Shown piece by piece: positions 18,486 to 64,000 of a stretch of DNA of 64,000 bases; the first letter of the stretch is position 1, and every line of letters starts with the position of its first letter. This stretch comes from Prescottella sp. R16 (GTDB lineage: Bacteria > Actinomycetota > Actinomycetes > Mycobacteriales > Mycobacteriaceae): assembly GCF_030656875.1 (NCBI RefSeq), contig NZ_CP130943.1, positions 62,001 to 126,000 on the forward strand, in the 5' to 3' direction. The translations under genes and the position numbers were made by a program. Below the pieces are notes generated by a model. The model did not search any database. It was not told where the DNA came from and saw nothing but the letters and a program-made list of their open reading frames with translations.

Positions 18486-18546
18486 TTGTACAGGTCTGCA
18501 ATCTGATTCGCTGAACGGCCAGTTGACGAACTGAGAGGTGTCTCCA

Positions 18547-49313: not shown

Positions 49314-49599
49314 GTCGGAAAGGTTCCCATCTGTGCGGAGGTGTTTGCGCTGCCTGAGTGGGGGAGTCGGGTGCGGTCGTGTCGCCGCGTTCATGCATGC
49401 GACCGTGATGATGATGTCGACGAAAGATGTTGATAGACAGATGTATTGATTACCCGTGCGTCAACGTCGTGTTGGAGAAGTGGGTGTCGGGCCGATCGAT
49501 GCGAGGGAGCGTATCAATCGTTTGCTGGGTCCGGAAGGAATCTGTGGCCACGACCCACTCAGCGGGACGTCTACCTCTGACCGCTCGTGTCGCCGAAGG

Positions 49600-50220: not shown

Positions 50221-50243
50221 TGTGCCCGACCATGTCTCAATGC

Positions 50244-50293
50244 TTGACGAGGGCGGGGCCCGCCCCTAATCTCCGTTAAGACATTCTGCCTTA
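50244..50293 (+). promoter_or_regulatory. Promoter of the dioxygenase locus with palindromes inside
   Basis: TTGACG (50244-50249) and TAATCT (50267-50272) are 17 bp apart. The spacer is filled by GGGCGGG-G-CCCGCCC (50251-50265), a perfect palindrome. TAAG-N9-CTTA (50277-50293) lies on the probable start site. Either could be the binding site of the divergent TetR protein. Confidence 0.6.
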
Positions 50294-50307
50294 GAAGGGG
50301 GTTCGCG

Positions 50308-51123
50308 ATGTCGACATCCGAACTGCACGTGCAACGGCTGGCCCACGCGCTCGGCGCCGAAGTGGCCGGCATCGATCTGTCACGGCCGCTGGATGCCGAC
50401 GTGGTGAAAGAGATCCGAGACCTCTTCCACGAGCACCAGGTGCTCTTCTTTCGAGATCAGCACATCGACGATGTGGCGCACCGTGATTTCGCCGTACACT
50501 TCGGCCCGTTGCAACGATTCGCGTTTCTGTCGCCGGTATCCGAGTCGGTGCCGGAAGTGCATGCGATCGACATCGATCCGACCAAGCCCAAGACGGCGAA
50601 CTCGGACATCTGGCATTCCGACGCCACCTTCCTCGCCCGACCACCCCTCGGATCGATGCTGCGCGCGGTGATCCTGCCCGATGTCGGCGGTGACACGTTG
50701 TGGGCGTCGATGTACGCGGCCTACGACGCGCTCTCGTCCCGTATGCAGCGACTTCTCGACGGGATGACTGCTGTGCACGACTCGTCGAACTCGGTCTCGC
50801 ACGCACGAAATGCCGTGAACGCGGACTTCCAGCCGACTTCTCACCCCGTCGTCCGGACCCATCCGGTGACCGGTCGCAAGGCCCTGTTCGTCAACAAGAT
50901 CTTCACCACCAGGATCGAGGGCCTCACCGACCGCGAGAACGATGCGCTGCTCCCGATGCTGACCGACCACGTCCGGTCGCCGGACTTCCAGGTTCGTTTC
51001 CGGTGGGAGCCCGGTTCCATCGCCCTGTGGGACAACAGGTGTACGCAGCACTATGCGGTGGCCGACTATGCCAGTCGACGCCGGATGCACCGGGTCGTGA
51101 TCGACGGTGACGAACCGGTGTAA
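50308..51123 (+). CDS. TauD/TfdA-family Fe(II)/2-oxoglutarate dioxygenase, alkylsulfatase- or taurine-dioxygenase-like
   Basis: A 271-residue dioxygenase with iron ligands H103 and D105 (WHSDATF) and H248 (CTQHYAVADY). R259 or R262 near the end is the 2-oxoglutarate anchor. N-terminal LGAEVAGIDLSRPLD is typical of the TauD/AtsK group. These enzymes hydroxylate the carbon next to a sulfate or sulfonate, which releases sulfate or sulfite. The ATG follows AAGGGGG. It leads a plus-strand run with a binding protein and an arylsulfatase, so an organosulfur substrate is likely. Other TfdA substrates are not excluded. Confidence 0.87.
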   Translation: MSTSELHVQRLAHALGAEVAGIDLSRPLDADVVKEIRDLFHEHQVLFFRDQHIDDVAHRDFAVHFGPLQRFAFLSPVSESVPEVHAIDIDPTKPKTANSDIWHSDATFLARPPLGSMLRAVILPDVGGDTLWASMYAAYDALSSRMQRLLDGMTAVHDSSNSVSHARNAVNADFQPTSHPVVRTHPVTGRKALFVNKIFTTRIEGLTDRENDALLPMLTDHVRSPDFQVRFRWEPGSIALWDNRCTQHYAVADYASRRRMHRVVIDGDEPV

Positions 51124-51172
51124 ACCGTCCCGGTGAGAGCGTCGCAGACCGCACCTATCGAGGGGATCGACA

Positions 51173-52747
51173 GTGCACACAGTGAGACGGGCGCCGAGAC
51201 TCGGTGTCGCGGCGGGACTTTTCGGGGTCGGGCTGCTGCTCGCAGCCTGCGGTGGGGGCGGCGGTGCCTCGACCGTTCCGACTGCGTCGGGGGACATCGA
51301 CCGCACCGCCGTCCTCCGGGTCACCTCGCCGGTTCCGACAGGAAGTCTCGATCCACATCTGCAGCGAACGTTCGGCGAGACAAGCTATCTGACGCCGATA
51401 TTCGACCGGCTGACCGTGATCGACGGACAGGGCCAGCTGGCCCCCGGCCTGGCGGAGTCGTGGGAGTTCGCACCGGACGGTTCGTACCTGGAGTTGCGTC
51501 TCCGAGAGGGCGTGACGTTCCACGACGGTGCCCGGTTCGACGCCGCGGCGGTGGCCGCGAACATCCGGCGTGGACAGACACTCGACGGCAGCACGGTCGC
51601 CGGCGCGCTACAGGGCATCACTGCAGTGGATGTCGTGGACGATAATCTCGTGCGTCTGCAACTGGCCCCCGGCACCGGAGTGGAGTTGCCCGGCCTGTTC
51701 AGCGCCAACGCGGGGATGATGATATCGCCGCAGGCGATCGAGGCCGGGGCCGATCTGCGAAACGATCCGGGACGCAGTGGCTCGGGTGCCTACCTCGTGA
51801 CGAAGTACGTTCCCCAGGAATCGGTCTCACTGGTACGTGCGGAGGAAACCAACTGGGATCCGGAAGCCGGCAAACTCGCCGGCATCGAATTCACGTGGAT
51901 CCCCGATGCCACCACCCGGCTGAACGGGGTGAAGACCGGAGCAACGGATCTGAGCTGGGTGAGCTCCGCCAACGAAGTCGTCGAGGCCGAGGCCCTGTCG
52001 AGGAACGGTGCTTTCGCCGTCACCGAAGTGCCGTTCCGGAACGTGCTCGGTCTGTACATGCGACCGCAGGGTGACCTCGCGGTGCCCCAGGTCCGGCAGG
52101 CGGTGGCATCGGCGATCGACCCCGACGCGATCAGCGCGCTGTTCTCGGGAACGTGCACCCCGACCCGGCAGTTGCATCCGGTCGGCGACTGGGCATCGGA
52201 CGAGTCGTACCGGTATCCGTACCCGTTCGACCCGGAGAAGGCGAAGAGCCTGGTGCAGGCTGTCGGCGGCGCGAAGGTCACATTGACGTTCGCGGCCGGT
52301 ACCAACGCGGAGAAGCCCGCGAACGTTATCCAGTCGGCACTCTCGGAAGTGGGTATCGAGGCCGAACTCGATCCGGTTCCGAACACACAGACCGAGCCCC
52401 GCTACATCGCCGGCGACTTCCAGACGAACGTTGCGAATACGTTCGGTGCCAAAGTCGACCCGGCCGAGACCGTGAGCACCTTCGTCACCGGAGCCTACGA
52501 CCTCGCGAACGGCAGCCCCCAGATCGGGGAACTGGCCGCGAAGGCCGCGAATCCGACCCTGTCACAGGCGGAGCGGGCCCCGCTCTACACCCGGATCTGG
52601 GATCTGACGTTGCAGGAAGCGATGTTCGTTCCGATCTGCAACCAGACCAACGCGACCGTCGCGACCGTGAAGGTGATCGGTGCCGACGACATGCCGTGGA
52701 CGAATCGGGGAGTCTTCGACGTGCGTCATCTAGGAATGCTCGAGTAA
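51173..52747 (+). CDS. Family 5 ABC substrate-binding lipoprotein (oligopeptide/opine type), orphan
   Basis: A 524-residue lipoprotein with a lipobox LAAC (C26). The family 5 (DppA/OppA) landmarks are SLDPHLQRTFGETSYLTPIF and LAESWEFAPDGSYLELRLRE. It starts at a GTG with GAGGGG upstream. No permease or ATPase gene lies nearby, so it must use one encoded elsewhere. Placed between the dioxygenase and an arylsulfatase, it probably captures an organosulfate or related bulky compound rather than a peptide. That is inference. Confidence 0.86.
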   Translation: MHTVRRAPRLGVAAGLFGVGLLLAACGGGGGASTVPTASGDIDRTAVLRVTSPVPTGSLDPHLQRTFGETSYLTPIFDRLTVIDGQGQLAPGLAESWEFAPDGSYLELRLREGVTFHDGARFDAAAVAANIRRGQTLDGSTVAGALQGITAVDVVDDNLVRLQLAPGTGVELPGLFSANAGMMISPQAIEAGADLRNDPGRSGSGAYLVTKYVPQESVSLVRAEETNWDPEAGKLAGIEFTWIPDATTRLNGVKTGATDLSWVSSANEVVEAEALSRNGAFAVTEVPFRNVLGLYMRPQGDLAVPQVRQAVASAIDPDAISALFSGTCTPTRQLHPVGDWASDESYRYPYPFDPEKAKSLVQAVGGAKVTLTFAAGTNAEKPANVIQSALSEVGIEAELDPVPNTQTEPRYIAGDFQTNVANTFGAKVDPAETVSTFVTGAYDLANGSPQIGELAAKAANPTLSQAERAPLYTRIWDLTLQEAMFVPICNQTNATVATVKVIGADDMPWTNRGVFDVRHLGMLE

Positions 52748-52772
52748 CGAAATTCGCGAGAGGACTTCATAT

Positions 52773-55115
52773 ATGACAATCAACCGTCACTCGATTCCCA
52801 TCGTCTCCGAGGTTCCGCAGCCGTCGCCTGCGGTCTACATCGAAGATCAGTCGGAGAAGTTCCGTCAGGTGCCCCCGGTCCGGCCGCCGGCAGGAGCACC
52901 GAACGTTCTCCTGGTGATGCTCGACGACGTGGGCTTCGGTGCGGCATCCACATTCGGTGGACCGTGCCGGACCTCGACGGCAGACCGGCTGGCGTCGAAC
53001 GGGTTGAAGTACAGCAGGTTCCATACCACTGCACTGTGCTCGCCGACGCGTGCCGCTACGTTGACCGGCCGCAATCACCACAGCGTCGGGATGGGAAACA
53101 TCGCCGAGATCTCGACATCTTCGCCGGGCTACAACGGCATGCGCCCTGCGAGCGCGGCCACCGTCGCGCGGGTGCTACAGGGCAACGGCTATGCAACCGC
53201 TGCCTTTGGGAAGATGCACCAGACACCGCCGTGGGAGAGCACGGCGGCCGGCCCGTTCGATCACTGGCCGCTGCGTGAGGGCTTCGACAAGTTCTACGGA
53301 TTTCTGGGGGCAGAGGCGGACCAGTTTGCGCCGGTGCTCCACGACGGCTTCACCATGGTCGATCCGCCCCGGACGGCGGCCGAGGGCTACCACCTCTCCG
53401 AGGACCTGGTGGACCAGGCGATCCAGTGGATCGAGGGCGTCGACGCCATGGACCCGGACAAGCCCTGGTTCTGCTACCTGCCGTTCGGTGCGGTCCATGC
53501 ACCGCTGCAGATCCCGGATTCGTACCAGGGCAAGTACCGGGGCGAGTTCGATCAGGGTTGGGACGCGCTGCGCGAGACCACGCTGGCGCGACAGAAGGAA
53601 CTCGGCGTGGTCGGAGCCGACACGGTGTTGGCGCCGTGGACTCCCGGGATTCCGCACTGGGACGAACTGACCGACGTGCAACGAGTCGTCGCGGCGCGGT
53701 TGATGGAGACTTACGCGGCGTTCCTGGAGCACACCGACGACCAGGTCGGACGTATGATCGGCTATCTCGAGGACCGGGGCGTGCTCGACGACACACTGGT
53801 CGTCTACATGATCGGTGACAACGGTGCCTCGACGGAGGGCGGTCTCGACGGGTCGTTCAACTACCTCGCGACGCTCAGCGGATTTCCGCAGTCTCCCGAG
53901 GAGATCTTCGAGCGCCTCGACGAGATCGGTACCGAGCACAGCTACGCCCACTATCCGGCAGGCTGGGCGGTCGCTCTCGATACGCCGTACCAGTGGGCCA
54001 AGCAGGTCGCGTCGCACTACGGTGGCACGAGGAACGGACTGGTAATCCACTGGCCCAACGGGATCCAAGCCCAAGGTGAGGTTCGGAACCAGTGGCACCA
54101 CTGTGTCGACATAGCCCCGACCATCCTCGAGGCGGCGGGTATCCCCAGCCCGACGACGGTCGACGGTGTAACGCAACAACCGGTCGAGGGGGTTGCGATG
54201 AACTACTCGTTCGACGAGGCCACGGCATCGGATCGGCACGTTACCCAGTACTTCGAGATCTTCGGTAACCGTGGCATCTACGACCACGGCTGGACCGCGG
54301 TGGCGATGCATCGGCGGCCGTGGGAGCTGATGGCGCCACCGCCGGACTACGCGGACGACGTGTGGGAACTGTACGACACCTCCGTCGATTGGTCTCAGTC
54401 GCAGGACCTTTCGGCACAGTATCCGCAGAAACTGGCCGAGTTGCAGGAGAAGTTCCTGCTCGAGTGCAGTCGCTACCAGGTGTTCCCTCTGGACGATCGT
54501 ACGAGAACCCGCAATCTCGACCCGCAGACGAGGGCACCCCACGTGCTGCGTGGCCGCACCGGACTCACGCTGTATCCCCACATGGACGGGATCATCGAGA
54601 AGGCGGCCCCGCGGGTGTTCAGTAGTTCGTACACGATTACGGCGAAAGTCGAGATCGGCGACTACCTTGCGAACGGTGTACTGATGAGCATCGGTGGCCG
54701 ATTCGGCGGATTCGCGCTCTACGTTGTCGATTCGGTACCGGTGTTCTGCTACAACTGCTCCGGGCGATCCTCGACGTACGTCCGGTCGCCCCGGACACTC
54801 TCCAGCGGAGTGCAGGACGTCACCGTCGACTTCGCGTACGACGGGGGCCGGCCGGGTAGTGGCGGCGTTTTCACTCTGTCGATCGACGGTATTCCGGTTG
54901 CGAAGCAGCGGATGTCGGCGACCACGCCGTTCCAATTCAGCCTCAACGAGTGCCTCGACATCGGAGTCAGCCGGGGCACGCCTGTCACCGACGAGATCCC
55001 GGTCGGCGGATTCGCTTTCGACGGCAAGCTCCACCACGTTCGGCTGGACGTCGAGGCGACCCGGCCGAGGGAAGAGGCGGGCGAGCTCGAGAGGATCGCG
55101 CGAGCGACTCAGTAG
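52773..55115 (+). CDS. Arylsulfatase, type I formylglycine-dependent (3 of 3)
   Basis: A 780-residue sulfatase of the same large type as the pair at 18.5-23.2 kb. It has metal ligands D51-D52, modification motif C89-S-P-T-R93, altered motif GKMHQTPPWE, and DNGASTEGG and HYGGTRNGLVIHWP. It resembles copy 1 most closely, with which it shares the GKMHQ variant and the GGPC loop near residue 65. The extra C-terminal beta-rich domain is present. ATG with GAGAGGA upstream. No signal peptide, so it is cytoplasmic. It presumably handles a substrate imported by one of the flanking binding proteins. Confidence 0.92.
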   Translation: MTINRHSIPIVSEVPQPSPAVYIEDQSEKFRQVPPVRPPAGAPNVLLVMLDDVGFGAASTFGGPCRTSTADRLASNGLKYSRFHTTALCSPTRAATLTGRNHHSVGMGNIAEISTSSPGYNGMRPASAATVARVLQGNGYATAAFGKMHQTPPWESTAAGPFDHWPLREGFDKFYGFLGAEADQFAPVLHDGFTMVDPPRTAAEGYHLSEDLVDQAIQWIEGVDAMDPDKPWFCYLPFGAVHAPLQIPDSYQGKYRGEFDQGWDALRETTLARQKELGVVGADTVLAPWTPGIPHWDELTDVQRVVAARLMETYAAFLEHTDDQVGRMIGYLEDRGVLDDTLVVYMIGDNGASTEGGLDGSFNYLATLSGFPQSPEEIFERLDEIGTEHSYAHYPAGWAVALDTPYQWAKQVASHYGGTRNGLVIHWPNGIQAQGEVRNQWHHCVDIAPTILEAAGIPSPTTVDGVTQQPVEGVAMNYSFDEATASDRHVTQYFEIFGNRGIYDHGWTAVAMHRRPWELMAPPPDYADDVWELYDTSVDWSQSQDLSAQYPQKLAELQEKFLLECSRYQVFPLDDRTRTRNLDPQTRAPHVLRGRTGLTLYPHMDGIIEKAAPRVFSSSYTITAKVEIGDYLANGVLMSIGGRFGGFALYVVDSVPVFCYNCSGRSSTYVRSPRTLSSGVQDVTVDFAYDGGRPGSGGVFTLSIDGIPVAKQRMSATTPFQFSLNECLDIGVSRGTPVTDEIPVGGFAFDGKLHHVRLDVEATRPREEAGELERIARATQ

Positions 55116-55330
55116 AGCATTTTCGTTGCCGACCGCATCGATTATACCGTGCACCACAGCGGTTTTCGGCGAAATTACCATGCAGCGATTTATCCTTCTT
55201 CGTGTGGCGATAGGGCGTGCCTACGTAGGGAAACTGATCCCGATGCTTGAGGGGATTAAATACATTGCTGCACATCGACTTTCGATTCACAAACCCGTGA
55301 AAAGTGCTTACGGGGAGGGTCGGCAGACGG
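55116..55330 (+). other. AT-richer intergenic segment, no gene seen
   Basis: This stretch is visibly lower in GC than the flanking genes (for example GGGGATTAAATACATTGC). It holds no open frame with a ribosome site. It leads into the promoter and operator of the next lipoprotein gene and may contain an untranslated or regulatory segment. Confidence 0.4.
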
Positions 55331-55364
55331 TATTATTGTGATCTATCTGTACGTGTACAGATAG
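55331..55364 (+). promoter_or_regulatory. -10 box and 22-bp operator before the second orphan binding protein
   Basis: TATTAT (55331-55336) is a good -10 box. Seven bases later, on the expected start site, lies a palindrome with arms CTATCTGTAC and GTACAGATAG around GT (55343-55364). A repressor bound there would block initiation. The cognate regulator is not evident. Confidence 0.65.
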
Positions 55365-55421
55365 TGGTGCCCCGCTTCATTGTGTCGGCGGAACTTCTTT
55401 CGAAACATCAAGGTAGGCAAT

Positions 55422-57032
55422 ATGAAATTGAACAGACGACGGCGGTCCCTGCCGCTGGTTGCGGTCGGGTTGGCCGGTCTGATGACGATCGCCGGATGTG
55501 CGTCTGCGGCCTCGGAAGATGTGGGGAACACCCGAGCCGCCGATCGGGAGGTAGGTTTCCTCGGGCTCGAGGAGGCCGGCGAGCCGGTGGACGGGGGTAC
55601 GCTGACCTTCGGTTCCTACGTGTTACCGAACGCGCTGGATCCGACCAAGACCAGGGCGAACGGTGCGGTGGGCGGAACGGAACTTGCCGCCATCTACGAC
55701 ACCCTCGTCCGGTCCGACTACGAGAGCGGTGGTTTCGAGCCTCAGCTCGCGGAACGGCTGACGAACAACGACGATTACACCCAGTTCACCGTCGAACTGC
55801 GGGGCGGCGCCACGTTCAGCGACGGGACGGCGGTCGACTCGGCAGCTGTGAAGTGGAGCATGGAACGGTACCTGGCCGCGAATTTCGACCAGGCAACTAC
55901 CTTCTCGAGCGTGTTGAGCAGCATCGACACCCCGGACCCTCACACGGTCGTGTTCAACCTCGATCGGTCATGGAGCCGATTCCCTGTGCTGCTGGCGATG
56001 GGCCCGGGATACATTGTGGCGCCGAGCTCCGAATCCGGCGGCACGTTCACCCCCATCGGCGCGGGCCCGTTCACCCTGACCAAGTTCGCACCCAACGAGG
56101 AAATCGCCCTGACCGCACGGGCGGACTACTACGGGGGGAAGCCGCATCTGGACGGGCTTCGCTTCGTGCCGACCTCCGGCGCACAGCCCCAGCTCGACTC
56201 GCTCGAGAGCGGGCAACTCGACATGGCTCACATCGTCCTCGACGAGGTCGTCATCAAGAACACTCTCGATCGCGGGTATCCAGGATTCCTGGATGTTCAA
56301 GGCCTCGGCCAGATCTTGCTCATCAATCAGCGTGAGGGGCGCCCCGGGGCCGATCTACGGGTGCGCAAGGCGGTCGCGTACGGCGTCGATCCGGTTATCT
56401 TCAATGATCGTGCGCACAATGGTCTGGGCATCGTGGATTCGAACCTGCTGACGGCCAACTCCCGGTGGACCAGCACTGTCGACGGGATCGTGTACGACCC
56501 GAAGAAGGCCAAGGAATTCCTCGACGAGGCCAAAGCCGACGGTTACGACGGCAAGCTCCGTCTGCTCACGTCCACCGAGCAGTTCGCGATGCAGGCGGCG
56601 TTGGCTGTGCAGGCGTCGCTGAATGCGATCGGATTCGACGTGAGCCTGGACACCGTTGGTGCCGCGGCCGAGAACAATCGACGAGTGTTCGCCGAGCGCG
56701 ACTTCGACATAGTTCGTAGCGGCTCCGCGTTCCTCGACGACGCCCCGCTGCTCCGACTCCAGGGCAGCATGATGAGTAACTCGAGCAACAACCCGCAGGG
56801 ATATGCGGACGAGCAGATGGACGAGTTGATACGCGAAGTGCAGACTGCGTCCACCGATGAGGACAAGAACGCCGTCCTGAGCAAGGTACAGCAGCGAATG
56901 AACGAGACCATTCCCTACGTTGTGCTCGGCCCGATGTCGACGCTCACCGCCTGGGACGACAACGTCCACGGGGTCGAGCGGACGGCGGACAACATCTGGT
57001 TCTTCGACACCGCGTGGTTGTCGAAGAACTGA
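55422..57032 (+). CDS. Family 5 ABC substrate-binding lipoprotein, second orphan
   Basis: A 536-residue lipoprotein with lipobox IAGC (C26) and the family 5 pattern GTLTFGSYVLPNALDPTKTR and LAERLTNNDDYTQFTVELRG. It is only distantly related to the protein at 51173-52747. The ATG at 55422 has AAGGTAGG upstream. It has its own promoter and operator and ends at a strong hairpin, so it is separately regulated. No transporter genes lie next to it. The ligand is unknown; the position between a sulfatase and an ipd-type catabolic cluster suggests uptake of a catabolic substrate. Confidence 0.86.
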   Translation: MKLNRRRRSLPLVAVGLAGLMTIAGCASAASEDVGNTRAADREVGFLGLEEAGEPVDGGTLTFGSYVLPNALDPTKTRANGAVGGTELAAIYDTLVRSDYESGGFEPQLAERLTNNDDYTQFTVELRGGATFSDGTAVDSAAVKWSMERYLAANFDQATTFSSVLSSIDTPDPHTVVFNLDRSWSRFPVLLAMGPGYIVAPSSESGGTFTPIGAGPFTLTKFAPNEEIALTARADYYGGKPHLDGLRFVPTSGAQPQLDSLESGQLDMAHIVLDEVVIKNTLDRGYPGFLDVQGLGQILLINQREGRPGADLRVRKAVAYGVDPVIFNDRAHNGLGIVDSNLLTANSRWTSTVDGIVYDPKKAKEFLDEAKADGYDGKLRLLTSTEQFAMQAALAVQASLNAIGFDVSLDTVGAAAENNRRVFAERDFDIVRSGSAFLDDAPLLRLQGSMMSNSSNNPQGYADEQMDELIREVQTASTDEDKNAVLSKVQQRMNETIPYVVLGPMSTLTAWDDNVHGVERTADNIWFFDTAWLSKN

Positions 57033-57221: not shown

Positions 57222-57806
57222 TCAGGGGTGCGCTCGAATGCCTTCCAGGAACACCGACACCACCGAGTCGGCGAGCTGGTCGATACCGAAGTCTCGGGTG
57301 GGGGTGAACCAGCGCAGCGACAGCCACACGGCGTCGCGGATGAGGCCGTACAGCACCTCGGCGGGCAGGTCTGAGCGGAACTCGCCCGAGGCGATGCCGG
57401 ATTCGATCACCGTCATCCAGGCATCCTTCGTGGTTCGCGCAGCGTCGCGAATCTTGCGGTGCGACTTCAGCTTGCGCAGATAGGTGCCGTTGTTCTGGTA
57501 GATCTCCGACGCGTGCGGGTGCGCCTGGCTGACCCGGAACGATGCCTTCACGAGGTCGTCGAGGCGTTCTCGTGGATCGTTCGACGATACGAGGATCGCC
57601 CTGTACTCGTCGACGAGGGCGTCGAGATACCGGGTGACGATCAGTTCGGCTATCGCGTCCTTGGACGGAAAGTAGTGGTACAGACTGCCGGAGAGGATGC
57701 CCACACCGTCGGCGATGTCACGCACCTTGGTGCCGGCGATACCCTTCGTAGCGAACAGGGCTGCGGCCTGCTCCATGATCAAGGTGTGGCGCTCCGACCA
57801 CTCCAT
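57222..57806 (-). CDS. KstR2-like TetR-family regulator
   Basis: A 194-residue TetR protein. The helix-turn-helix stretch TKVRDIADGVGILSGSLYHY is nearly identical to that of mycobacterial KstR2 (TVRDIADGAGILSGSLYHHF from memory), and the C-terminal IRDAVWLSLRWF also agrees. KstR2 represses the genes for the last steroid rings and is released by a CoA thioester. The ATG has GGAGG upstream. A palindrome AGCAAACATTTGCT 69 bp before the start closely resembles the KstR2 site. The same motif occurs twice more in this cluster. It is probably a paralogue with its own ligand. Confidence 0.9.
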   Translation of the reverse strand: MEWSERHTLIMEQAAALFATKGIAGTKVRDIADGVGILSGSLYHYFPSKDAIAELIVTRYLDALVDEYRAILVSSNDPRERLDDLVKASFRVSQAHPHASEIYQNNGTYLRKLKSHRKIRDAARTTKDAWMTVIESGIASGEFRSDLPAEVLYGLIRDAVWLSLRWFTPTRDFGIDQLADSVVSVFLEGIRAHP

Positions 57807-57871
57807 ACCTACCTCCGAAATCGAGACGGCCCGGTGACCCGGGCGATCGTGTTGTCCGGGTCGACTCTATC

Positions 57872-57891
57872 GGCAGCAAACATTTGCTACC
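57872..57891. promoter_or_regulatory. KstR2-like operator, site A
   Basis: AGCAAACATTTGCT (57875-57888) is a perfect palindrome with a CA centre, within a GG...CC extension. It lies before the KstR2-like regulator gene, consistent with autoregulation. The published KstR2 consensus is AnCAAGnnCTTGnT; here the inner G and C are A and T. Confidence 0.8.
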
Positions 57892-57937
57892 GATGTGTGG
57901 GTCCGCTCCGGGGTTGCCGGACGGAACGGAGGGCTGA

Positions 57938-58972
57938 TCAGAGCCGGCTCGCGTACCGCCAGGCCTGCGCCGCCAGCCGCTCGGCCTGAGCGCCGAAGGA
58001 TTCCGGTGAGCGGTCGCTCGCGCCCATCGCGCCACGCAGCATGCGCGTGTAGACACCCTCGACGATGCACGCGATCTTCCACCAGTTGTAGGCGATGTAG
58101 AAGTCGATGTCGGGCACCGTGTCCGGCCGTACCGCGGCGAGGTACTGCTCCACCAGGTCGTCGCGCGTGGGAAATCCCGGCACGCGGGTGGGTGGGTTCT
58201 CGAGGGCGCACACCTCGTCGTCGAGCTGCGCCCAGTACGCGAGCAGTTGGCCGAGATCGGCCAGCGGGTCACCGACGGTCGTGAGCTCCCAGTCGAGGAT
58301 CCCGCCGATCGTGCCGTCGGGTGCGAAGAGGCAGTTGTCGAGCCGGAAGTCGCCGTGGACGATCCGCGCGGAGCCCTGCCGGGGCAGGCGTTCGAGCAGG
58401 CGATCGTGGGCGCGTCCGATGTCGTCGAGGACACGGACGCGGTCCTGGGCCCAGTTCGTCGACCAGCGCCGCAGCTGACGGGCGAGGTAGTCGTCGCGGT
58501 CGGCGAGGCCGCCCCAGCCGACGTCGCGCGGGTCCACGGCGTGCAGGGTGGCCAGGGCCCGGACCAGTTCGGCCGCGACGGCGGGGCGTCGATCGACGGG
58601 CACCGTGGCCGTCACCGTGTCGGGATCGCGGAGCACGACGCCGTCGAGGTGGTTCATGACGAAGAACGGCGCGCCGGTGACGGCGTCGTCGTCGCAGGTA
58701 CCGACGATCAGCGGGGTCGGCACCGGAGTGTTCCGCAGACGGTCGAGTACCTCGGCTTCACGGAGCACGTCGTGGGCGCGCGAATGTGCCATGCCCAGGG
58801 GTGGTCGTCGCAGGACCCACCGGGCGCTGGGGCCCTGTACCAGGTAGGTCAGGTTGGACCGGCCGCCGGCGATGCGCTCGAAGCGGAACGGCCCCGTCGC
58901 GTCGTCGACGTGCTCGGTGAACCACCGGGAGACCGCGTCGTCGCGGATCCCGGTGTCGGTGGTGCTGGCCAT
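57938..58972 (-). CDS. APH-fold phosphotransferase family protein
   Basis: A 344-residue aminoglycoside-phosphotransferase-fold kinase. The catalytic loop is HGDFRLDNCLF, and the metal-binding Asp follows in ILDWELTTVGDP. The N-lobe motif GGRSNLTYLV is present. Members of this branch accompany acyl-CoA dehydrogenases and are fused to them in mitochondrial ACAD10/11, where they phosphorylate 4-hydroxyacyl-CoA intermediates. The ATG at 58972 has GGAAAGG upstream. It is divergent from the TIM-barrel gene with an operator in between, so it belongs to the KstR2-like regulon. Phosphorylation of a hydroxy intermediate is the likely role. Confidence 0.85.
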   Translation of the reverse strand: MASTTDTGIRDDAVSRWFTEHVDDATGPFRFERIAGGRSNLTYLVQGPSARWVLRRPPLGMAHSRAHDVLREAEVLDRLRNTPVPTPLIVGTCDDDAVTGAPFFVMNHLDGVVLRDPDTVTATVPVDRRPAVAAELVRALATLHAVDPRDVGWGGLADRDDYLARQLRRWSTNWAQDRVRVLDDIGRAHDRLLERLPRQGSARIVHGDFRLDNCLFAPDGTIGGILDWELTTVGDPLADLGQLLAYWAQLDDEVCALENPPTRVPGFPTRDDLVEQYLAAVRPDTVPDIDFYIAYNWWKIACIVEGVYTRMLRGAMGASDRSPESFGAQAERLAAQAWRYASRL

Positions 58973-59050
58973 CGGCTGCCTTTCCGGTAGGGGCAGAGCC
59001 GGCGTTCGGCGTGTGCGAATCGCCGGTACGAGAGGGAGACTATACGGCGC

Positions 59051-59066
59051 ATCAAACATTTGCTAC
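59051..59066. promoter_or_regulatory. KstR2-like operator, site B
   Basis: ATCAAACATTTGCTAC lies between the divergent phosphotransferase and TIM-barrel genes. It is identical over 16 bases to the reverse complement of site C and differs from site A at one base. Confidence 0.82.
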
Positions 59067-59121
59067 ATTGCGTTCGCACCACGATCTCGGCATTGTCACC
59101 TGCTCTGCGACAGGAGGATTC

Positions 59122-59946
59122 GTGCACCACTCTCCCTCGATCACGGATGTGGACCACCGGTCCGCCCTCAGTGTCTGTATTGCGGCGACGGCCGACCGCC
59201 CACTCGGGGAATCGCTGGCGATGCTGCGCCGCATCGGCGTGGACCGCTTCGGGCTGTTGGCGGCGACTATGGCCGGTCAGGGCTGGAACGAGTCGATCGA
59301 GACGATCCGGGTGTCCGGCCTACAGCCCGAGTTCATCGCCGGTGGGTGCCGTGCCATGCACGACGGCGACGGATGGGAACGCGTGCTGTCCACGCTCGAG
59401 CGGGCGATCGACGCCGCGGCGGAGATCGGTGCCCCCACAGTGTGTTTCACCTCGGGTGGATCCGGCCGGCTCTCCTGGGAGGAGGCCGCCGACGCCGCGG
59501 CCGAGCGGTTCGCTCCGCTCGTCGCGTACGCGGAGGAGCGGGGGATCGGTCTCGCGCTGGAGAACACCATGTCGATCCGGTCGGCGATGAGCTTCACACA
59601 CAGTGTCGCGGACATCGCGGAACTGGCCCGCCGGCTCGGTGTCGGACTCATGGTGGATCTGTGTTCGGCGTGGCAGGAGAGGGATTTGATGCAGACGATC
59701 GGCGACAATCTGGACTCGATCCGGATCGTGCAGATCGGGGATCGTCACGTCGACGCGACGTCGGTGCCGAACCGTCGGGTCCCGGGGGAGGGGAGCATTC
59801 CCCTCGACCGGATGGTGTCCGAGGTGGGCGCACTCGGATACACCGGGCTGATCGATCTCGAGCTGCTCGGTCCGGCGATCGACGAGGAGGGCGCCGAGAG
59901 CGCGATGGGACGTGGGCTGGAGTGGATGCGGAAGTACGTGCCGTGA
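59122..59946 (+). CDS. Sugar phosphate isomerase/epimerase-like TIM-barrel protein
   Basis: A 274-residue xylose-isomerase-like barrel. Metal-site candidates are E in LALENTM, D in LMVDLCSAW, H in IGDRHVDA and E in DLELLGP. These proteins isomerise or cleave hydroxy-ketones. It starts at a GTG after AGGAGG. It is the first plus-strand gene after operator B and lies 90 bp before the ipdA-like gene. It has no counterpart I recall in the known steroid ring C/D operon, so it may define what is new about this pathway. Substrate unknown. Confidence 0.82.
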   Translation: MHHSPSITDVDHRSALSVCIAATADRPLGESLAMLRRIGVDRFGLLAATMAGQGWNESIETIRVSGLQPEFIAGGCRAMHDGDGWERVLSTLERAIDAAAEIGAPTVCFTSGGSGRLSWEEAADAAAERFAPLVAYAEERGIGLALENTMSIRSAMSFTHSVADIAELARRLGVGLMVDLCSAWQERDLMQTIGDNLDSIRIVQIGDRHVDATSVPNRRVPGEGSIPLDRMVSEVGALGYTGLIDLELLGPAIDEEGAESAMGRGLEWMRKYVP

Positions 59947-59960
59947 TCCCGCGAGAGTAT

Positions 59961-59978
59961 GTAGCAAATGTTTGATAC
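59961..59978. promoter_or_regulatory. KstR2-like operator, site C
   Basis: GTAGCAAATGTTTGATAC; its reverse complement contains ATCAAACATTTGCTAC, the same 16 bases as site B. It lies 14 bp after the TIM-barrel stop and before the ipdA-like gene. The ATG at 59968 falls inside it, which argues against that ATG as the ipdA start. Confidence 0.82.
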
Positions 59979-60036
59979 GCGCGGACCCGAAGGGACGAAG
60001 ACGCGCGGTCGGGACGTAGACGAAGGATGGATCGAA

Positions 60037-60900
60037 TTGTCGGACAAGACGATGTCGGAGAAGGAAGTGGTCAGCCGGCTGAAATCCGGTATGACCATCG
60101 GTATCGGTGGGTGGGGTTCGCGGCGCAAGCCCATGTCGCTCGTGCGGGAGATCCTGCGGTCGGACATCGACGATCTCACGGTCGTGTCGTACGGCGGGCC
60201 GGACGTGGGCCTGCTGTGCGCGGCGGGCAAGGTGCGCAAGGTCGTCTTCGGGTTCGTGTCGCTGGACTCGATCCCGCTCGACCCGCACTTCCGCGCCGCC
60301 CGGCAGGGCGGGCGCGTCGAGGTCGCCGAGTACGACGAGGGAATGCTCCAATGGGGCCTGTACGCCGCCGGTATCCGGCTGCCCTACCTGCCGACTCGTG
60401 CGGGTCTCGGCTCGGACGTCATGCGTGTCAACCCCGAGTTGCGCACGGTCACCGACCCGTACGGTGACGAGACCCTCGTCGCGATGCCTGCGATCCCGCT
60501 CGATGCGGCGCTGGTCCACATGAACCGTGCCGACGTGCACGGCAATGCCCAGTACCTGGGTCCGGACCTGTACTTCGACGATCTGTTCTGCATGGCCGCC
60601 GAACAGGTGTTCGTCTCGTGTGAGCGCATCGTTCCGACCGCGGAACTCACCGCCGCCGCTCATCCGTCGACGATTCGGATCCCGCGTCTACTGGTGTCCG
60701 GCGTGGTGCAGGCTCCGGGTGGCGCGCACTTCACGTCGTGCGTGCCGGACTACGACCGCGACGAGGCATTCCAGCGCGAATACGTCTCGGCGGCAAAGGA
60801 TCCAGAGCAATGGCAGGCGTTCGTCGACCGCTACCTGGCGGTCCCGGAGGCGGAATATCAGCGCGCGGTGCACGGCGAGCGTGAGGAGGCTTCGGCATGA
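60037..60900 (+). CDS. ipdA: IpdA-like CoA-transferase-fold hydrolase, alpha subunit
   Basis: A 287-residue subunit close to mycobacterial IpdA, which with IpdB hydrolyses the last ring (COCHEA-CoA) in steroid degradation. Shared segments are LKSGMTIGIGGWGSRRKPM, DDLTVVSYGGPDVGLLC, VFGFVSLDS, PGGAHFTSCVPDYDRDE and QAVDRYL-like ends. The usual CoA-transferase glutamate is not used by this family. The start is taken as the TTG at 60037 with GAAGGATGG upstream, because it aligns in length with IpdA. The ATG at 59968 lies in an operator. It is coupled by ATGA to the beta subunit. It may act on a ring other than that of the classical steroid pathway. Confidence 0.88.
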   Translation: MSDKTMSEKEVVSRLKSGMTIGIGGWGSRRKPMSLVREILRSDIDDLTVVSYGGPDVGLLCAAGKVRKVVFGFVSLDSIPLDPHFRAARQGGRVEVAEYDEGMLQWGLYAAGIRLPYLPTRAGLGSDVMRVNPELRTVTDPYGDETLVAMPAIPLDAALVHMNRADVHGNAQYLGPDLYFDDLFCMAAEQVFVSCERIVPTAELTAAAHPSTIRIPRLLVSGVVQAPGGAHFTSCVPDYDRDEAFQREYVSAAKDPEQWQAFVDRYLAVPEAEYQRAVHGEREEASA

Positions 60901-61655
60901 GTGCAGCGACACGGGCGGAAGTATGTGTGGTGGCGTGCGCCGAGGCGTATCGCGGTAACGGTGAGGTGATCGCGAGCGCGTTCGGGACGATCCCTGCGAT
61001 CGGGGTTCGCCTGGCCCGGCACACGTTCGAACCGGACCTGGTGATCTCGGACGGAGAGGCCAGCGCGGTCCGGGGAACGTGGGCGGTCGGTGGCCCCGCG
61101 GAGGGTGACGTCGAGGCGTGGCTGCCGTTCAACCAGATCTTCAGTCTGGTGTGGAACGGCAAGCGCCACATCACGATGATCCCGACCCAGCTCGACACGT
61201 ACGGCAACTGCAACATATCCGCGATCGGAGACCACGCGCAGCCGAAGGTGCAGTTGCTCGGTGTCCGCGGTGCGCCGAGCAACACCGTCTACCATCCCAC
61301 CAGCTACTGGGTGCCCAAGCACAGCACGCGGGTGTTCGTGCCCAAGGTCGACATGGTGTCCGGTGTCGGCTACGACAACGCACGCAAGGCCGGGCCGGCG
61401 GCGTCCCGCTACCACGAGCTACGCCGGGTCGTCACCGATCTCGCGGTCTTCGACTTCACGCCCGACACCGGCCGGCTCCGCCTCGTGTCGGTGCATCCCG
61501 GTGTCACCGTCGACGACGTCGTCGCGGCCACCGGATGCGAGTTGGTGGTCCCGGAGTCGGTGTCGGAGACCCGGATGCCGACCGCCGAGGAACTCGAACT
61601 GATCCGCACCGTGATCGACCCGAAGAACCTGCGGGACAAGGAGGTCCAAGCATGA
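60897..61655 (+). CDS. ipdB: IpdB-like CoA-transferase-fold hydrolase, beta subunit
   Basis: A 252-residue partner of the IpdA-like subunit. It shows the class I CoA-transferase beta fold (VACAEAYRGNGEVIASAFGTI, GNCNISAIGDHAQPKVQLLG) and the IpdB-type GAPSNTVYHPTSYWVPKHS. The heteromer opens a cyclic enone CoA thioester by retro-Claisen hydrolysis. Its ATG overlaps the ipdA stop, and its stop overlaps the ipdC-like start, so the three are strictly coupled. Length matches the family. Confidence 0.9.
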   Translation: MSAATRAEVCVVACAEAYRGNGEVIASAFGTIPAIGVRLARHTFEPDLVISDGEASAVRGTWAVGGPAEGDVEAWLPFNQIFSLVWNGKRHITMIPTQLDTYGNCNISAIGDHAQPKVQLLGVRGAPSNTVYHPTSYWVPKHSTRVFVPKVDMVSGVGYDNARKAGPAASRYHELRRVVTDLAVFDFTPDTGRLRLVSVHPGVTVDDVVAATGCELVVPESVSETRMPTAEELELIRTVIDPKNLRDKEVQA

Positions 61656-62749
61656 CGGCCGTGACCGACGGGAATGCGATCCATCCGGCGCTGCACACCA
61701 GGCTGTGCGATCTGTTCGGCGTGCGCTACCCGATCGTGCAGACCGGCATGGGCTACGTCTCCGACGCCCGCCTCACCGCGGCCACCGCCGCGGCGGGTGG
61801 GCTCGGGATCATCGCCGGCGGCATGCTCACCTACGACGAACTCGAGCAGGCGATCAACCACGTCAAGGACCACACCGACGCCCCGTTCGGGGTGAACGTG
61901 CGCGCCAACCAGGAGGACGTCGACCGGCGCCTCGACCTCATGATCCGGTCCGGGGTGAAGGTGGCGTCGTTCGCGCTGGCCCCCAAACGGGACCTGATCG
62001 CGAAACTCAAGGACGCCGGACTGGTGGTGGTGCCGTCGATCGGTGCCCGCCGGCACGCCGAGAAGGTCGCCGAGTGGGGCGTCGACGCCGTCGTCGTGCA
62101 GGGCGGGGAGGGTGGCGGCCATACCGGCGCCGTCCCGACCAGCCTGCTGCTGCCGCAGGTCGTCGACGCCGTCGACATCCCGGTGATCGCCGCCGGCGGC
62201 TACTTCGACGGCCGTGGGCTGGTGTCCGCGCTCGCGTACGGTGCCGACGGCATCGCGATGGGCACCCGCTTCATGCTCACCAGTGATTCGCCGGTGGCGC
62301 AGTCGGTCAAGGACGTCTACCTGTCGAAGTCGGTGAACGACACCGTCGTGACGCTCGAAATCGACGGGGTGCCGCAGCGGGTGCTGCGCGCCGGGACGAT
62401 CGATCAGCTCGAGTCCACGCGGGGGCCGCAGCGCATGCTGCGCGCCGTCCGTAACGCCGTTGCCTTCCAGAAGCTCTCGGGTGCCTCGTGGAAGGACATG
62501 ATCCGCGAGGGACTCGAGATGAAGAAGAGTCACGAACTCGGATGGCGTCAGGTCGTCATGGCCGCGAACGCCCCGATGCTGTATCGCTCCGCACTCGTCG
62601 ACGGCAACGCCGACGTCGGGGTGATGGCCACCGGCCAGGTGGTGGGGCTCATCGACGACGTCCCGAGCTGCGCCGAGCTGATCGACCGGATGGTACGGGA
62701 GGCGGAGTCCGTCCTGGGCCGGCTCACTGGCACCGACGAGCGTGTCTAG
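61652..62749 (+). CDS. ipdC: IpdC-like flavin-dependent dehydrogenase (nitronate-monooxygenase fold)
   Basis: A 365-residue FMN TIM-barrel enzyme starting near LCDLFGVRYPIVQTGMGYVS, with FMN sites VVVQGGEGGGHTGAV and [20 protein letters not shown]. In mycobacteria IpdC is encoded directly after ipdAB and acts on the CoA thioester before ring opening. The same order and the ATGA coupling to ipdB support the name. GGAGGTCC precedes the ATG. It is longer than the nitronate-monooxygenase-like protein at 6658-7641 and of a different subgroup. Confidence 0.87.
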   Translation: MTAVTDGNAIHPALHTRLCDLFGVRYPIVQTGMGYVSDARLTAATAAAGGLGIIAGGMLTYDELEQAINHVKDHTDAPFGVNVRANQEDVDRRLDLMIRSGVKVASFALAPKRDLIAKLKDAGLVVVPSIGARRHAEKVAEWGVDAVVVQGGEGGGHTGAVPTSLLLPQVVDAVDIPVIAAGGYFDGRGLVSALAYGADGIAMGTRFMLTSDSPVAQSVKDVYLSKSVNDTVVTLEIDGVPQRVLRAGTIDQLESTRGPQRMLRAVRNAVAFQKLSGASWKDMIREGLEMKKSHELGWRQVVMAANAPMLYRSALVDGNADVGVMATGQVVGLIDDVPSCAELIDRMVREAESVLGRLTGTDERV

Positions 62750-62787
62750 TGCACAACCGAACTCATACTTCTACGAGGAGACATCAG

Positions 62788-63663
62788 ATGAACCAGCTGA
62801 AGGATCGAGTGATCGTGGTGACCGGCGCCGGTCGCGGTATCGGTCGCGAGCACGCGCTGCTGGCCGCCGCCGAGGGGGCCCGGGTGGTCGTCAACGACAC
62901 CGGCGCCGGTCCGGACGGCAAGGGATCGGATCCGTCACTGGCGGCGCAGGTCGCGGACGAGATCACCGCGGCCGGAGGCATTGCGGTGGTGAACACGGCG
63001 GACGTCACGACGATCGAGGGTGCCCAGAGCCTGCTCGACACCGCACTGGGCAGCTTCGGTGAGGTGCACGGGCTCGTGAACAACGCCGGCATCCTGCGAG
63101 ATCGCATGTTCGTCAACATGAGCGAGGACGAGTGGGACGACGTCATCACCGGGCAACTGCGCGGCACATTCGCGCCGTGCCGGGTGTTCGGCGCGCACTG
63201 GCGGGACCGCTCGAAGGCGGGGGATGCGGTGAAGGCGTCGATCGTGAACGTCTCGAGCACGTCCGGGCTGCTCGGCGCCGTCGGGCAGAGCAACTACGGT
63301 GCCGCCAAGGCCGGTATCGCGTCGCTCACCGTCATTCTCGCGCAGGAGTTGGAGCGTTACGGGATTCGGGCCAACGCCATCACCCCGGTGGCCCGCACCC
63401 GCATGACCGAGAACGTGCCCGGGATCAAGGACATGGTGGCCGAGCCCGCCGACCCGAACGAGTTCGATGTCTACCACCCGGGCAACGTCTCGCCCGTCGT
63501 CGCCTACCTCCTCACCGAAGCGTGCCCGGCAAACGGGTCGGTGTTCTACGCCAAGGGTGGCGAGATCCGGCAGTTCCTCGGCTGGCAGTACGGGAAGGTC
63601 CTCGACAAGGGCGCCCGCTGGACCGTCGACGAGCTCGTCCAGGAGATGAGCGGACTCGTCTGA
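62788..63663 (+). CDS. SDR-family hydroxyacyl-CoA dehydrogenase-like protein
   Basis: A 291-residue SDR of the large type related to the dehydrogenase part of multifunctional enzyme 2 (17-beta-HSD type 4). It has TGAGRGIGREHA, VVVNDTGAG, NNAGILRDR, serine in VSSTSGLLG and YGAAKAG. It would oxidise a 3-hydroxyacyl-CoA or a ring hydroxyl. ATG with GAGGAG, 38 bp after the ipdC-like stop, so in the operon. The following MaoC-type gene fits as a hydratase partner. An IpdF-like role is possible, but IpdF is shorter. Confidence 0.86.
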   Translation: MNQLKDRVIVVTGAGRGIGREHALLAAAEGARVVVNDTGAGPDGKGSDPSLAAQVADEITAAGGIAVVNTADVTTIEGAQSLLDTALGSFGEVHGLVNNAGILRDRMFVNMSEDEWDDVITGQLRGTFAPCRVFGAHWRDRSKAGDAVKASIVNVSSTSGLLGAVGQSNYGAAKAGIASLTVILAQELERYGIRANAITPVARTRMTENVPGIKDMVAEPADPNEFDVYHPGNVSPVVAYLLTEACPANGSVFYAKGGEIRQFLGWQYGKVLDKGARWTVDELVQEMSGLV

Positions 63664-63695
63664 GCACGTCCCGAACCACGAGCGCAGGAGAAAAC

Positions 63696-64000
63696 ATGGC
63701 CAACGCAGCCGCCGTCGGTGTCGAGGGTGTTCCCTTCGATCTCGTCGTCGAACGAGGCAAGATCCGGGAGTTCGCGAAGGCGACCGGATCGTCCGATCCC
63801 GACTATCTCGAGCGGGAGGACGCGGTGTCCCCGCCGACGTTCCTCACCACGACCTTGCACTGGCAGCCCCCGGAGGGAAACCCCTGGAAGTCGGTGGAAC
63901 TCGACCAGAAGCGCGGTTTGCACGCCGAGCAGCAGTACGAGTTCTTCGGGCCGCCGCCCAAGGCCGGCACCCGGCTGCGGTGCACGTCGCGCATCGCCGA
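63696..64000 (+). CDS. MaoC/FAS1-type dehydratase, N-terminal part (3' end outside window)
   Basis: The first 101 codons encode an N-terminal hotdog dehydratase domain. The motif FAKATGSSDPDYLEREDAVS and PPTFLTTTLHWQPP match the HadA/FAS1-like MaoC domain. The ATG follows AGGAGAAAAC, 32 bp after the SDR stop. It would hydrate the enoyl-CoA made in the same pathway. The catalytic half, or a partner gene, lies beyond the edge. Confidence 0.82.
   Translation, partial: MANAAAVGVEGVPFDLVVERGKIREFAKATGSSDPDYLEREDAVSPPTFLTTTLHWQPPEGNPWKSVELDQKRGLHAEQQYEFFGPPPKAGTRLRCTSRIA

What the first reader, a model, noticed from the sequence alone, without database searches (positions are those of the whole stretch)
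57222..64000. A second ipdABC-type ring-opening module under its own KstR2-like regulator
The regulator's recognition helix is almost that of KstR2, and ipdA-ipdB-ipdC-like genes follow in the known order with ATGA coupling. The cluster also has a phosphotransferase and a xylose-isomerase-like barrel that I do not recall in the classical steroid C/D-ring regulon, and no fadD3 or acyl-CoA dehydrogenase is visible. This suggests ring opening of a different steroid-like or alicyclic CoA thioester.
Basis: partly seen in the sequence, partly recalled or inferred. Interest (0 to 1): 0.82.

Follow-up and report, generated by a model that had tools for sequence, protein, structure and literature searches.

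The report
Second ring-opening operon with kinase pair
This actinobacterium carries, besides the usual genes that break open the last two rings of steroids, a second and separately controlled set of such genes joined to a kinase-dehydrogenase pair of a kind known to strip hydroxyl groups from acids, which points to an undescribed route for a ring compound that may not be ordinary cholesterol.

Summary
The window carries ipdA-ipdB-ipdC homologues in order, with ATGA overlaps, under a KstR2-like TetR; the canonical ipdAB/kstR2 locus sits separately at C1:732-748 kb. The operon runs 9 kb past the window edge: rest of a MaoC pair, a reductase, an acyl-CoA dehydrogenase, a Liv-type importer and an acyl-CoA ligase. 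The "odd" phosphotransferase and this dehydrogenase match the two halves of ACAD11, with eight named functional residues conserved; such pairs phosphorylate and remove a 4-hydroxyl from acyl-CoA. Three operators, absent from shuffles, are KstR2 palindromes with one symmetric change (CAAAnnTTTG for CAAGnnCTTG). The 14 two-copy genomes found among 401 sampled all carry the changed form here; two relatives with only this IpdA carry the classical one. The set is not a recent duplicate (p-AU 0.00025). Related clusters occur in two species in which KshA and HsaC-type genes were not found. Best reading: an insulated, anciently diverged C/D-ring-type pathway for a hydroxylated, perhaps sulfated, alicyclic acid. 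The substrate is unproven.

The parts
57222..57806 (-). KstR2-like TetR regulator (194 aa)
   Evidence: nearest solved relatives 2ibd and KstR2 4w97/4w1u, 135-136 bits; 38% identical to own canonical KstR2; SLYHYF recognition helix
57875..57888 (.). operator 1, AGCAAACATTTGCT, upstream of the regulator
   Evidence: perfect ANCAAANNTTTGNT; 3 in window, 0 in 100 dinucleotide shuffles
57938..58972 (-). APH-type kinase, ACAD11 kinase-domain / LvaA type (start codon uncertain; 59059 also possible)
   Evidence: 8v3v ACAD11 124 bits; residues at D220, N225 and R176 kept
59051..59064 (.). operator 2, ATCAAACATTTGCT, between the divergent kinase and barrel genes
59122..59946 (+). xylose-isomerase-like TIM barrel (AP_endonuc_2)
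   Evidence: Pfam PF01261, 91.8 bits
59963..59976 (.). operator 3, AGCAAATGTTTGAT, upstream of ipdA2
60037..60900 (+). ipdA2, alpha subunit of an IpdAB-type ring hydrolase
   Evidence: 6co6_A 348 bits; the Glu that is Ala in 6coj is kept (YDEG)
60897..61655 (+). ipdB2, beta subunit
   Evidence: 6co6_B 265 bits; Gly at the Gly57 position in place of the CoA-transferase Glu
61652..62749 (+). ipdC2, FabK/NMO-like flavoenzyme
   Evidence: 60% identical to canonical IpdC; PF03060
62788..63663 (+). IpdF-like SDR
   Evidence: 53% identical to canonical IpdF; NCBIfam NF005861 above cut-off
63696..64000 (+). start of MaoC-type hydratase subunit 1 (ends at 64145, past the window); the operon goes on with maoC2 64142-64549, ADH 64546-65526, ACAD11-type dehydrogenase 65529-66728, livKHMGF 66762-71382 and fadD 71390-73051, in window numbering carried on

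Best explanation
A second, separately regulated C/D-ring-type catabolic operon, anciently diverged and probably horizontally acquired. The KstR2-like repressor is proposed to bind a KstR2 palindrome altered by one symmetric base (CAAAnnTTTG), so that it does not cross-talk with the resident KstR2 (CAAGnnCTTG). In the proposed route an acid is imported (here by the Liv-type ABC importer), activated (FadD) and shortened (MaoC pair, SDR, reductase); IpdF-like/IpdC2 make a cyclic enone CoA ester and IpdAB2 opens the six-membered ring by retro-aldol hydrolysis as with COCHEA-CoA. The APH-type kinase phosphorylates a 4-hydroxyacyl-CoA and the ACAD11-type dehydrogenase removes the phosphate to give a 2-enoyl-CoA for beta-oxidation. 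Shown: gene content, residues, operators, phylogeny. Inferred: each reaction, their order, repressor binding, and that the substrate is a hydroxylated alicyclic acid. One chemically neat but unproven place for the kinase step: IpdAB hydrolysis leaves a ketone gamma to the far carboxylate, a levulinate homologue, which after reduction is a 4-hydroxy acid.
For: Two IpdAB pairs in the genome. Concatenated IpdABC tree: the 14 two-copy family loci are one clade (100*), inside a 22-row clade (99*) with other actinobacteria; joining 10 of them with 5 canonical mycolata sets is rejected, p-AU 0.00025. Operators: 3 in the window, 0 in 100 shuffles; at least one altered-form site in 14 of 14 two-copy loci and no pure classical site there, classical form in 2 of 2 family members having only this IpdA. 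ACAD11-type dehydrogenase in 14 of 14 and kinase in 13 of 14 of those loci, and both in Actinokineospora, Micromonospora chalcea and Sphaerimonospora. ACAD11 hits 449-452 bits against 162 for the best conventional ACAD; residues at R626, R631, H634, R637, D753 and kinase D220, N225, R176 kept. KshA (55% identity or more) not found in 7 of 18 and HsaC-type not found in 3 of 11 genomes, all of them carriers of this half of the tree.
Against: No substrate or expression data. IpdABC of this half of the tree is the only copy in 12 of 20 genomes checked, where it may do ordinary HIP degradation. No echA20, thiolase or conventional ACAD in the operon, so it cannot be self-sufficient for HIP unless it borrows canonical enzymes. 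The Liv importer is in the stretch in only 2 of 14 two-copy loci and the ligase in 8 of 14, so import and activation by these genes are not conserved features. The APH/ACAD11 pair is a common accessory: three more such pairs exist in this genome. The altered operator also occurs in Streptomyces KstR2 loci (IpdA copy number there not checked), and mixed sites (one CAAA, one CAAG half) lie in 4 of the 14 two-copy loci.
Confidence: 0.52

Rival explanations
1. A redundant or variant HIP pathway: the operon degrades the same HIP/5-OH-HIP (or bile-acid 7-OH-HIP) as the canonical one, taken up from outside as a waste product of other steroid degraders, and the extra genes only broaden its range.
For: IpdABC of this half of the tree is the sole copy in 12 of 20 genomes reached, several with echA20 and a classical KstR2-type operator nearby; HIP-type genes without KshA would fit scavenging; a second ipdAB pair with predicted KstR2 control is already tabulated in Nocardioides simplex (PMC7807495, passage).
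Against: 0 of 14 two-copy loci carry echA20 within the 20-30 kb searched, and all 14 carry the ACAD11 type; a separate operator would be of little use for one shared substrate; the set is kept in five genera of the family.
Confidence: 0.28
2. A pathway for a non-steroidal alicyclic acid (terpenoid, macrocyclic or cyclohexane-type) that merely borrows the retro-aldol ring opener IpdAB.
For: Related clusters in Actinokineospora and M. chalcea, where neither KshA nor HsaC-type genes were found; own ligase and importer; no ring-D hydrolase in the window operon.
Against: The M. chalcea and Actinokineospora clusters keep echA20 at 67% identity, the ring-D hydrolase, which argues for a hydrindane; sulfatase neighbours in several loci would fit steroid sulfates as well.
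Confidence: 0.15
3. The operon is the ordinary KstR2 locus with extra neighbours.
For: Same gene order ipdA-ipdB-ipdC and a similar recognition helix.
Against: The canonical locus is elsewhere in the genome and groups with other canonical actinobacterial sets; the AU test rejects joining the two.
Confidence: 0.02

Closest known systems
KstR2 regulon / HIP (C/D-ring) pathway of Mycobacterium and Rhodococcus (PMC5380842, PMC3068626)
   Same: ipdA-ipdB-ipdC order with overlaps, IpdF-like SDR, KstR2-like repressor, 14-bp palindrome of the same frame, conserved IpdAB signature residues
   Different: operator CAAAnnTTTG; no echA20, fadA6 or conventional ACAD in the operon; added kinase/ACAD11 pair, barrel, MaoC pair, reductase and (here) a Liv importer; 38-60% identity; different branch of the IpdABC tree
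ACAD10/ACAD11 of mammals and LvaA/LvaC of Pseudomonas putida (PMC12440821, PMC11342911)
   Same: kinase and dehydrogenase in one regulon, split as in LvaA/LvaC; eight named kinase and phosphate-pocket residues conserved
   Different: motif HAMR in place of HCMR; residue R86 could not be placed; substrate presumably cyclic or derived from a ring-opened acid, not a linear 4-hydroxy fatty acid; activity untested
Second ipdAB pair of Nocardioides simplex VKM Ac-2033D (KR76_25105/25110; PMC7807495)
   Same: two ipdAB pairs in one genome, both marked as predicted KstR2 targets
   Different: only one ipdC is listed in the passage seen; a Nocardioides locus in which no ipdC was found (L078) falls in the canonical half of the tree, not with this set; that L078 is the counterpart of KR76_25105 is my inference

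Membership tests
IpdAB COCHEA-CoA hydrolase | closer to IpdAB than to CoA-transferases | tested here: met
   348 / 265 bits against 6co6 A / B, 93 / 63 against glutaconate CoA-transferase; that 6co6 is IpdAB is recalled
IpdAB COCHEA-CoA hydrolase | catalytic Glu of the alpha subunit present | tested here: met
   the only Glu changed to Ala in 6coj in the alignment (chain position 117; Glu105 by recall) is Glu in IpdA2; that it is catalytic is recalled
IpdAB COCHEA-CoA hydrolase | CoA-transferase Glu of the beta subunit replaced (Gly57 in RHA1) | tested here: met
   Gly aligned with chain position 57; statement read in PMC5380842 discussion
IpdAB COCHEA-CoA hydrolase | hydrolyses COCHEA-CoA | not testable with these tools
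   needs purified enzyme
canonical HIP / KstR2 operon | echA20, fadA6 and fadD3 in the regulon | tested here: not met
   echA20 and fadA6 homologues lie in the canonical locus L009; none in the window operon or its extension; the operon's ligase is far below the FadD3 family cut-off (210 against 657 bits)
KstR2 repressor | nearest characterised relative is KstR2 | tested here: met
KstR2 repressor | operator AnCAAGnnCTTGnT | tested here: not met
   three sites AnCAAAnnTTTGnT; consensus read in PMC3068626
KstR2 repressor | orthologous to the genome's KstR2 | tested here: not met
   38% identity; separate canonical KstR2 at C1:732955; three paralogues score higher with the window regulator than KstR2 does
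KstR2 repressor | released by HIP-CoA | not testable with these tools
   ligand recalled; not tested
ACAD10/11 - LvaA/LvaC pair | kinase catalytic Asp (D220), N225 and R176 | tested here: met
   placed by counting along 8v3v (offset 1); roles; H(G/N)DxxxxN and RQ motifs in 16 of 16 kinases found in 17 loci
ACAD10/11 - LvaA/LvaC pair | kinase R86 | tested here: inconclusive
   an Arg next to the helix Glu is kept, but by the same count it is position 84, so R86 could not be placed
ACAD10/11 - LvaA/LvaC pair | dehydrogenase R626, R631, H634, R637 and catalytic D753 | tested here: met
   (offset 1; the D753 substitution of 8v3v fits); RLGPGR(I/V)HHAMR and DGPDEV in 17 of 17 loci
ACAD10/11 - LvaA/LvaC pair | HCMR motif exactly | tested here: not met
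   HAMR in 17 of 17; 4hr3 also HAMR; two other own-genome relatives have HCMR
ACAD10/11 - LvaA/LvaC pair | turns 4-hydroxyacyl-CoA into 2-enoyl-CoA | not testable with these tools
   needs assay

The most novel reading that the evidence does not exclude
A previously undescribed actinobacterial pathway that joins IpdAB-type retro-aldol ring opening to ACAD11/LvaA-type phospho-dehydroxylation, used also by some bacteria in which no KshA or HsaC-type enzyme was found to eat hydroxylated (possibly sulfated) hydrindane or related alicyclic acids, and kept apart from the resident cholesterol regulon by a symmetric one-base change in the operator matched by a His-to-Tyr change in the recognition helix.
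Probability: 0.35. Interest if true: 0.76.

Novelty: new variant of a known kind. Interest (0 to 1): 0.6.

Why it matters
If true, it adds a route to the short list of ways bacteria break fused alicyclic rings, gives the ACAD10/11-type kinase pair a role outside fatty acids and levulinate, and offers a natural case of a repressor-operator pair rewired so that two close regulons can coexist. It also tells annotators that a second ipdAB/kstR2 hit is not by itself a sign of cholesterol degradation.

Tried and rejected
Ordinary locus with extra neighbours: rejected by the second, canonical locus and the AU test. Recent duplication inside mycolata: rejected (the 44 rows were chosen by me from 98, and the test used 10 of 14 two-copy sets and 5 of 6 canonical mycolata sets). 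Operator form as a clean mark of two-copy genomes: rejected, because Streptomyces KstR2 loci also carry CAAAnnTTTG or mixed sites, with SLYYHF or (L067) SLYHHF helices; L029 has SLYHYF with no site found; and in Sphaerimonospora, also with two IpdA, the second cluster has CAAG sites while the canonical locus has AACAAATGTTTGGT. HIL (5-hydroxy-HIP lactone) as the substrate of the kinase: disfavoured, because ACAD10-dependent phospho-intermediates formed from 4-hydroxy but not 5- or 6-hydroxyhexanoate (PMC11342911 passage). Plasmid carriage: 32 plasmid records matched IpdA2, the best at 67% identity, so no window-type copy. The genome-wide search with the loose motif ANCAARNNYTTGNT is weak evidence by itself (10 places against 8 for the reversed-pattern control); I rely on the strict motif and shuffles in the window. 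Copy counts rest on at most six scored candidates per genome. The ipdB column is unreliable (a fixed slice fails on extended reading frames) and the 87-row regex counts there (61 of 87 and 63 of 87 true) were not used. In one search a regex missed the kinase motif in two of four loci; not used. No structure prediction or fold search was run.

Papers: PMC5380842 abstract and sections 10, 11 and 14; PMC3068626, PMC12440821, PMC11342911, PMC7807495, PMC8399759 and PMC8708139 as found passages; all others as search listings only. Searches behind 'not found in print': (open-licence PMC papers only).
Full report
The claim and its check. All the named genes are there. The genome (4.57 Mb, window = C1:62001-126000) has two IpdAB-type pairs among ten CoA-transferase matches: this one and one at C1:740-742 kb. 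The other lies in a textbook neighbourhood, kstR2, fadA6, ipdC, ipdB, ipdA, echA20, ipdF, a fadA5-like thiolase and cyp125, with kshA, hsaA, hsaD and hsaC some 17-30 kb away; these gene names are mine, by recall of the families, not from an annotation. Window and canonical proteins share 38% (regulator), 55% (IpdA), 51% (IpdB), 60% (IpdC) and 53% (IpdF-like SDR) identity.

The operon is longer than the window. From base 63696 on come a pair of MaoC-type subunits, a PIG3-type reductase, an acyl-CoA dehydrogenase, a complete Liv-type ABC importer and an acyl-CoA ligase, ending at 73051 in window numbering, with repeated 4-base overlaps. The ligase is not FadD3 by NCBIfam's cut-off (210 against 657 bits).

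Ring-opening signature. IpdA2 and IpdB2 are far closer to 6co6 (IpdAB of R. jostii by recall) than to CoA-transferases. The Glu that is Ala in 6coj is kept in IpdA2, and IpdB2 has Gly where transferases have the catalytic Glu, the feature that PMC5380842 gives as one line of evidence that IpdAB is not a transferase. Hence IpdAB2 is best read as a hydrolase; its substrate was not tested.

The phosphotransferase and the dehydrogenase are one system. Against solved structures the dehydrogenase scores 449-452 bits with ACAD11 and 429 with 4hr3, then falls to 162. The kinase's matches are 9o56 (175 bits), 3dxp (165), ACAD11 (124 and 121) and 3ats (39). PMC12440821 reports that ACAD10/11 phosphorylate the 4-hydroxyl of 4-hydroxyacyl-CoA and turn the product into 2-enoyl-CoA, and names the residues. 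Counting along the alignments, R626, R631, H634, R637 and D753 of the dehydrogenase and D220, N225 and R176 of the kinase are kept; R86 could not be placed; the HCMR motif reads HAMR. In 17 cluster loci examined, the dehydrogenase motif is kept in 17 and the kinase motif in 16 of 16 kinases found, with no kinase found in L134. The genome has three other dehydrogenase/kinase pairs of this type, each less than 1 kb apart, at 59, 52 and 36% identity to this dehydrogenase, so the pair is not unique to ring opening; its steady presence in this operon is what matters.

Regulation. Three sites fit ANCAAANNTTTGNT: upstream of the regulator, between the divergent kinase and barrel genes, and upstream of ipdA2; none in 100 dinucleotide shuffles. 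The published KstR2 motif is AnCAAGnnCTTGnT (PMC3068626), so these are KstR2 sites with one symmetric change. The canonical locus has one perfect CAAG site and two with one mismatch; five canonical loci of other two-copy family genomes show the one-mismatch CAAG form. The regulator's helix has SLYHYF in 12 of 12 two-copy loci where a regulator was found, against SLYHHF in the regulators of all 14 loci that carry pure CAAG sites. In the family this is one inherited change, not repeated evidence. Results against a simple rule: Streptomyces KstR2 loci carry CAAA or mixed sites with SLYYHF, L067 with SLYHHF; L029 has SLYHYF and no site found; Sphaerimonospora has the two operator forms the other way round; and mixed sites lie in L016, L017, L018 and L133 of the two-copy set.

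Distribution. Of 401 genomes drawn from the family, 307 have an IpdA-type match and 16 have one at 73% identity or more to IpdA2; 14 of those 16 also have the canonical type, and these 14, from five genera, are the only genomes listed with two matches (at most six candidates scored per genome). In the 14 loci, within 20-30 kb stretches: dehydrogenase, reductase, both MaoC genes, SDR and IpdBC in 14; kinase and barrel in 13; regulator in 12; ligase in 8; Liv importer in 2; at least one CAAA operator in 14; echA20 in 0. The two with IpdA2 alone have echA20, no ACAD11-type gene in the stretch (one of them only 7.7 kb long) and a CAAG operator.

Phylogeny. In the IpdABC tree (98 rows, quick method; 44 rows chosen by me, careful method) the two-copy sets form one clade (100*) within a clade holding Actinokineospora, Micromonospora chalcea, Sphaerimonospora, Streptomyces triticisoli, Conexibacter and the IpdA2-only relatives; the larger half that holds them has weaker support (81). 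Canonical mycolata sets group with other canonical actinobacterial sets. Forcing the two mycolata sets together costs 300 log units, p-AU 0.00025.

Do carriers of this branch degrade whole steroids? KshA at 55% identity or more was found in 11 of 18 genomes and not in G005 (Actinokineospora), G006 (M. chalcea) or five Dactylosporangium/Phytohabitans genomes, three of which had only distant Rieske matches near 30%. HsaC-type dioxygenase at E 1e-20 was found in 8 of 11 (5 of 11 over the family's cut-off) and not in G005, G006 or G010. G005 and G006 have IpdABC, echA20, the ACAD11 type and the kinase. Thus this branch can occur where the usual ring-A/B genes were not found, which fits uptake of a preformed bicyclic acid or a non-steroidal substrate. 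Absence was judged by one search each.

Sulfatases. From, 7 of the 14 two-copy genomes have a sulfatase within 12 kb of ipdA2 (9 hits; by my arithmetic about 0.5 expected from 117 hits in about 77 Mb), from three genera; the other seven show none. In L017, L018 and L133 the sulfatase lies inside the cluster with a mixed-type site at the 5' end of its reading frame. This hints at a sulfate-ester substrate.

Mechanism. Shown: genes, residues, operators, tree. Inferred: import, CoA activation, side-chain shortening, enone formation by IpdF-like/IpdC2, retro-aldol opening by IpdAB2, and phosphorylation-elimination of a 4-hydroxyl. The retro-aldol step leaves a ketone gamma to the far carboxylate (my reading of the COCHEA to MOODA chemistry), so reduction, CoA activation at that end and the kinase pair would work as in levulinate use. 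That placement is a proposal, at about 0.3.

Known or new. Searches listed no paper that describes this operon; one paper tabulates two ipdAB pairs in N. simplex without comment in the passages seen. I rate it a new variant of a known kind.

Noticed in passing
window 18538-20871, 20868-23195, 52773-55115; also 47814-57032: Three sulfatases, a TauD-type dioxygenase, an MFS transporter and two SBP_bac_5 binding proteins lie in the window; parts of this set recur beside the operon in relatives.
   Followed up: partly
L137:7820-10161 (C1:3.78 Mb): Another KstR2-like TetR (45% to the window regulator) adjoins an acyl-CoA ligase 55% identical to the operon's ligase.
   Followed up: partly
L139:9204-12341 (C1:947-950 kb): A third KstR2-like TetR lies beside a KshA paralogue.
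   Followed up: no
C1:4202281, 4206178, 4210526: Three copies of the mixed palindrome AGCAAACGCTTGTT (either strand) within 8.3 kb, near another TetR, suggest a further KstR2-like regulon.
   Followed up: no
C1:444509, C2:25339, C2:33927: Three KshA-type matches with the same score and identity to the query, two on the small contig C2 in opposite directions, suggest recent duplication.
   Followed up: no
L146 and L147 (Sphaerimonospora thailandensis): Another two-copy genome in which the canonical locus has a CAAA operator and the ACAD11-type cluster CAAG operators, the reverse of Rhodococcus.
   Followed up: partly
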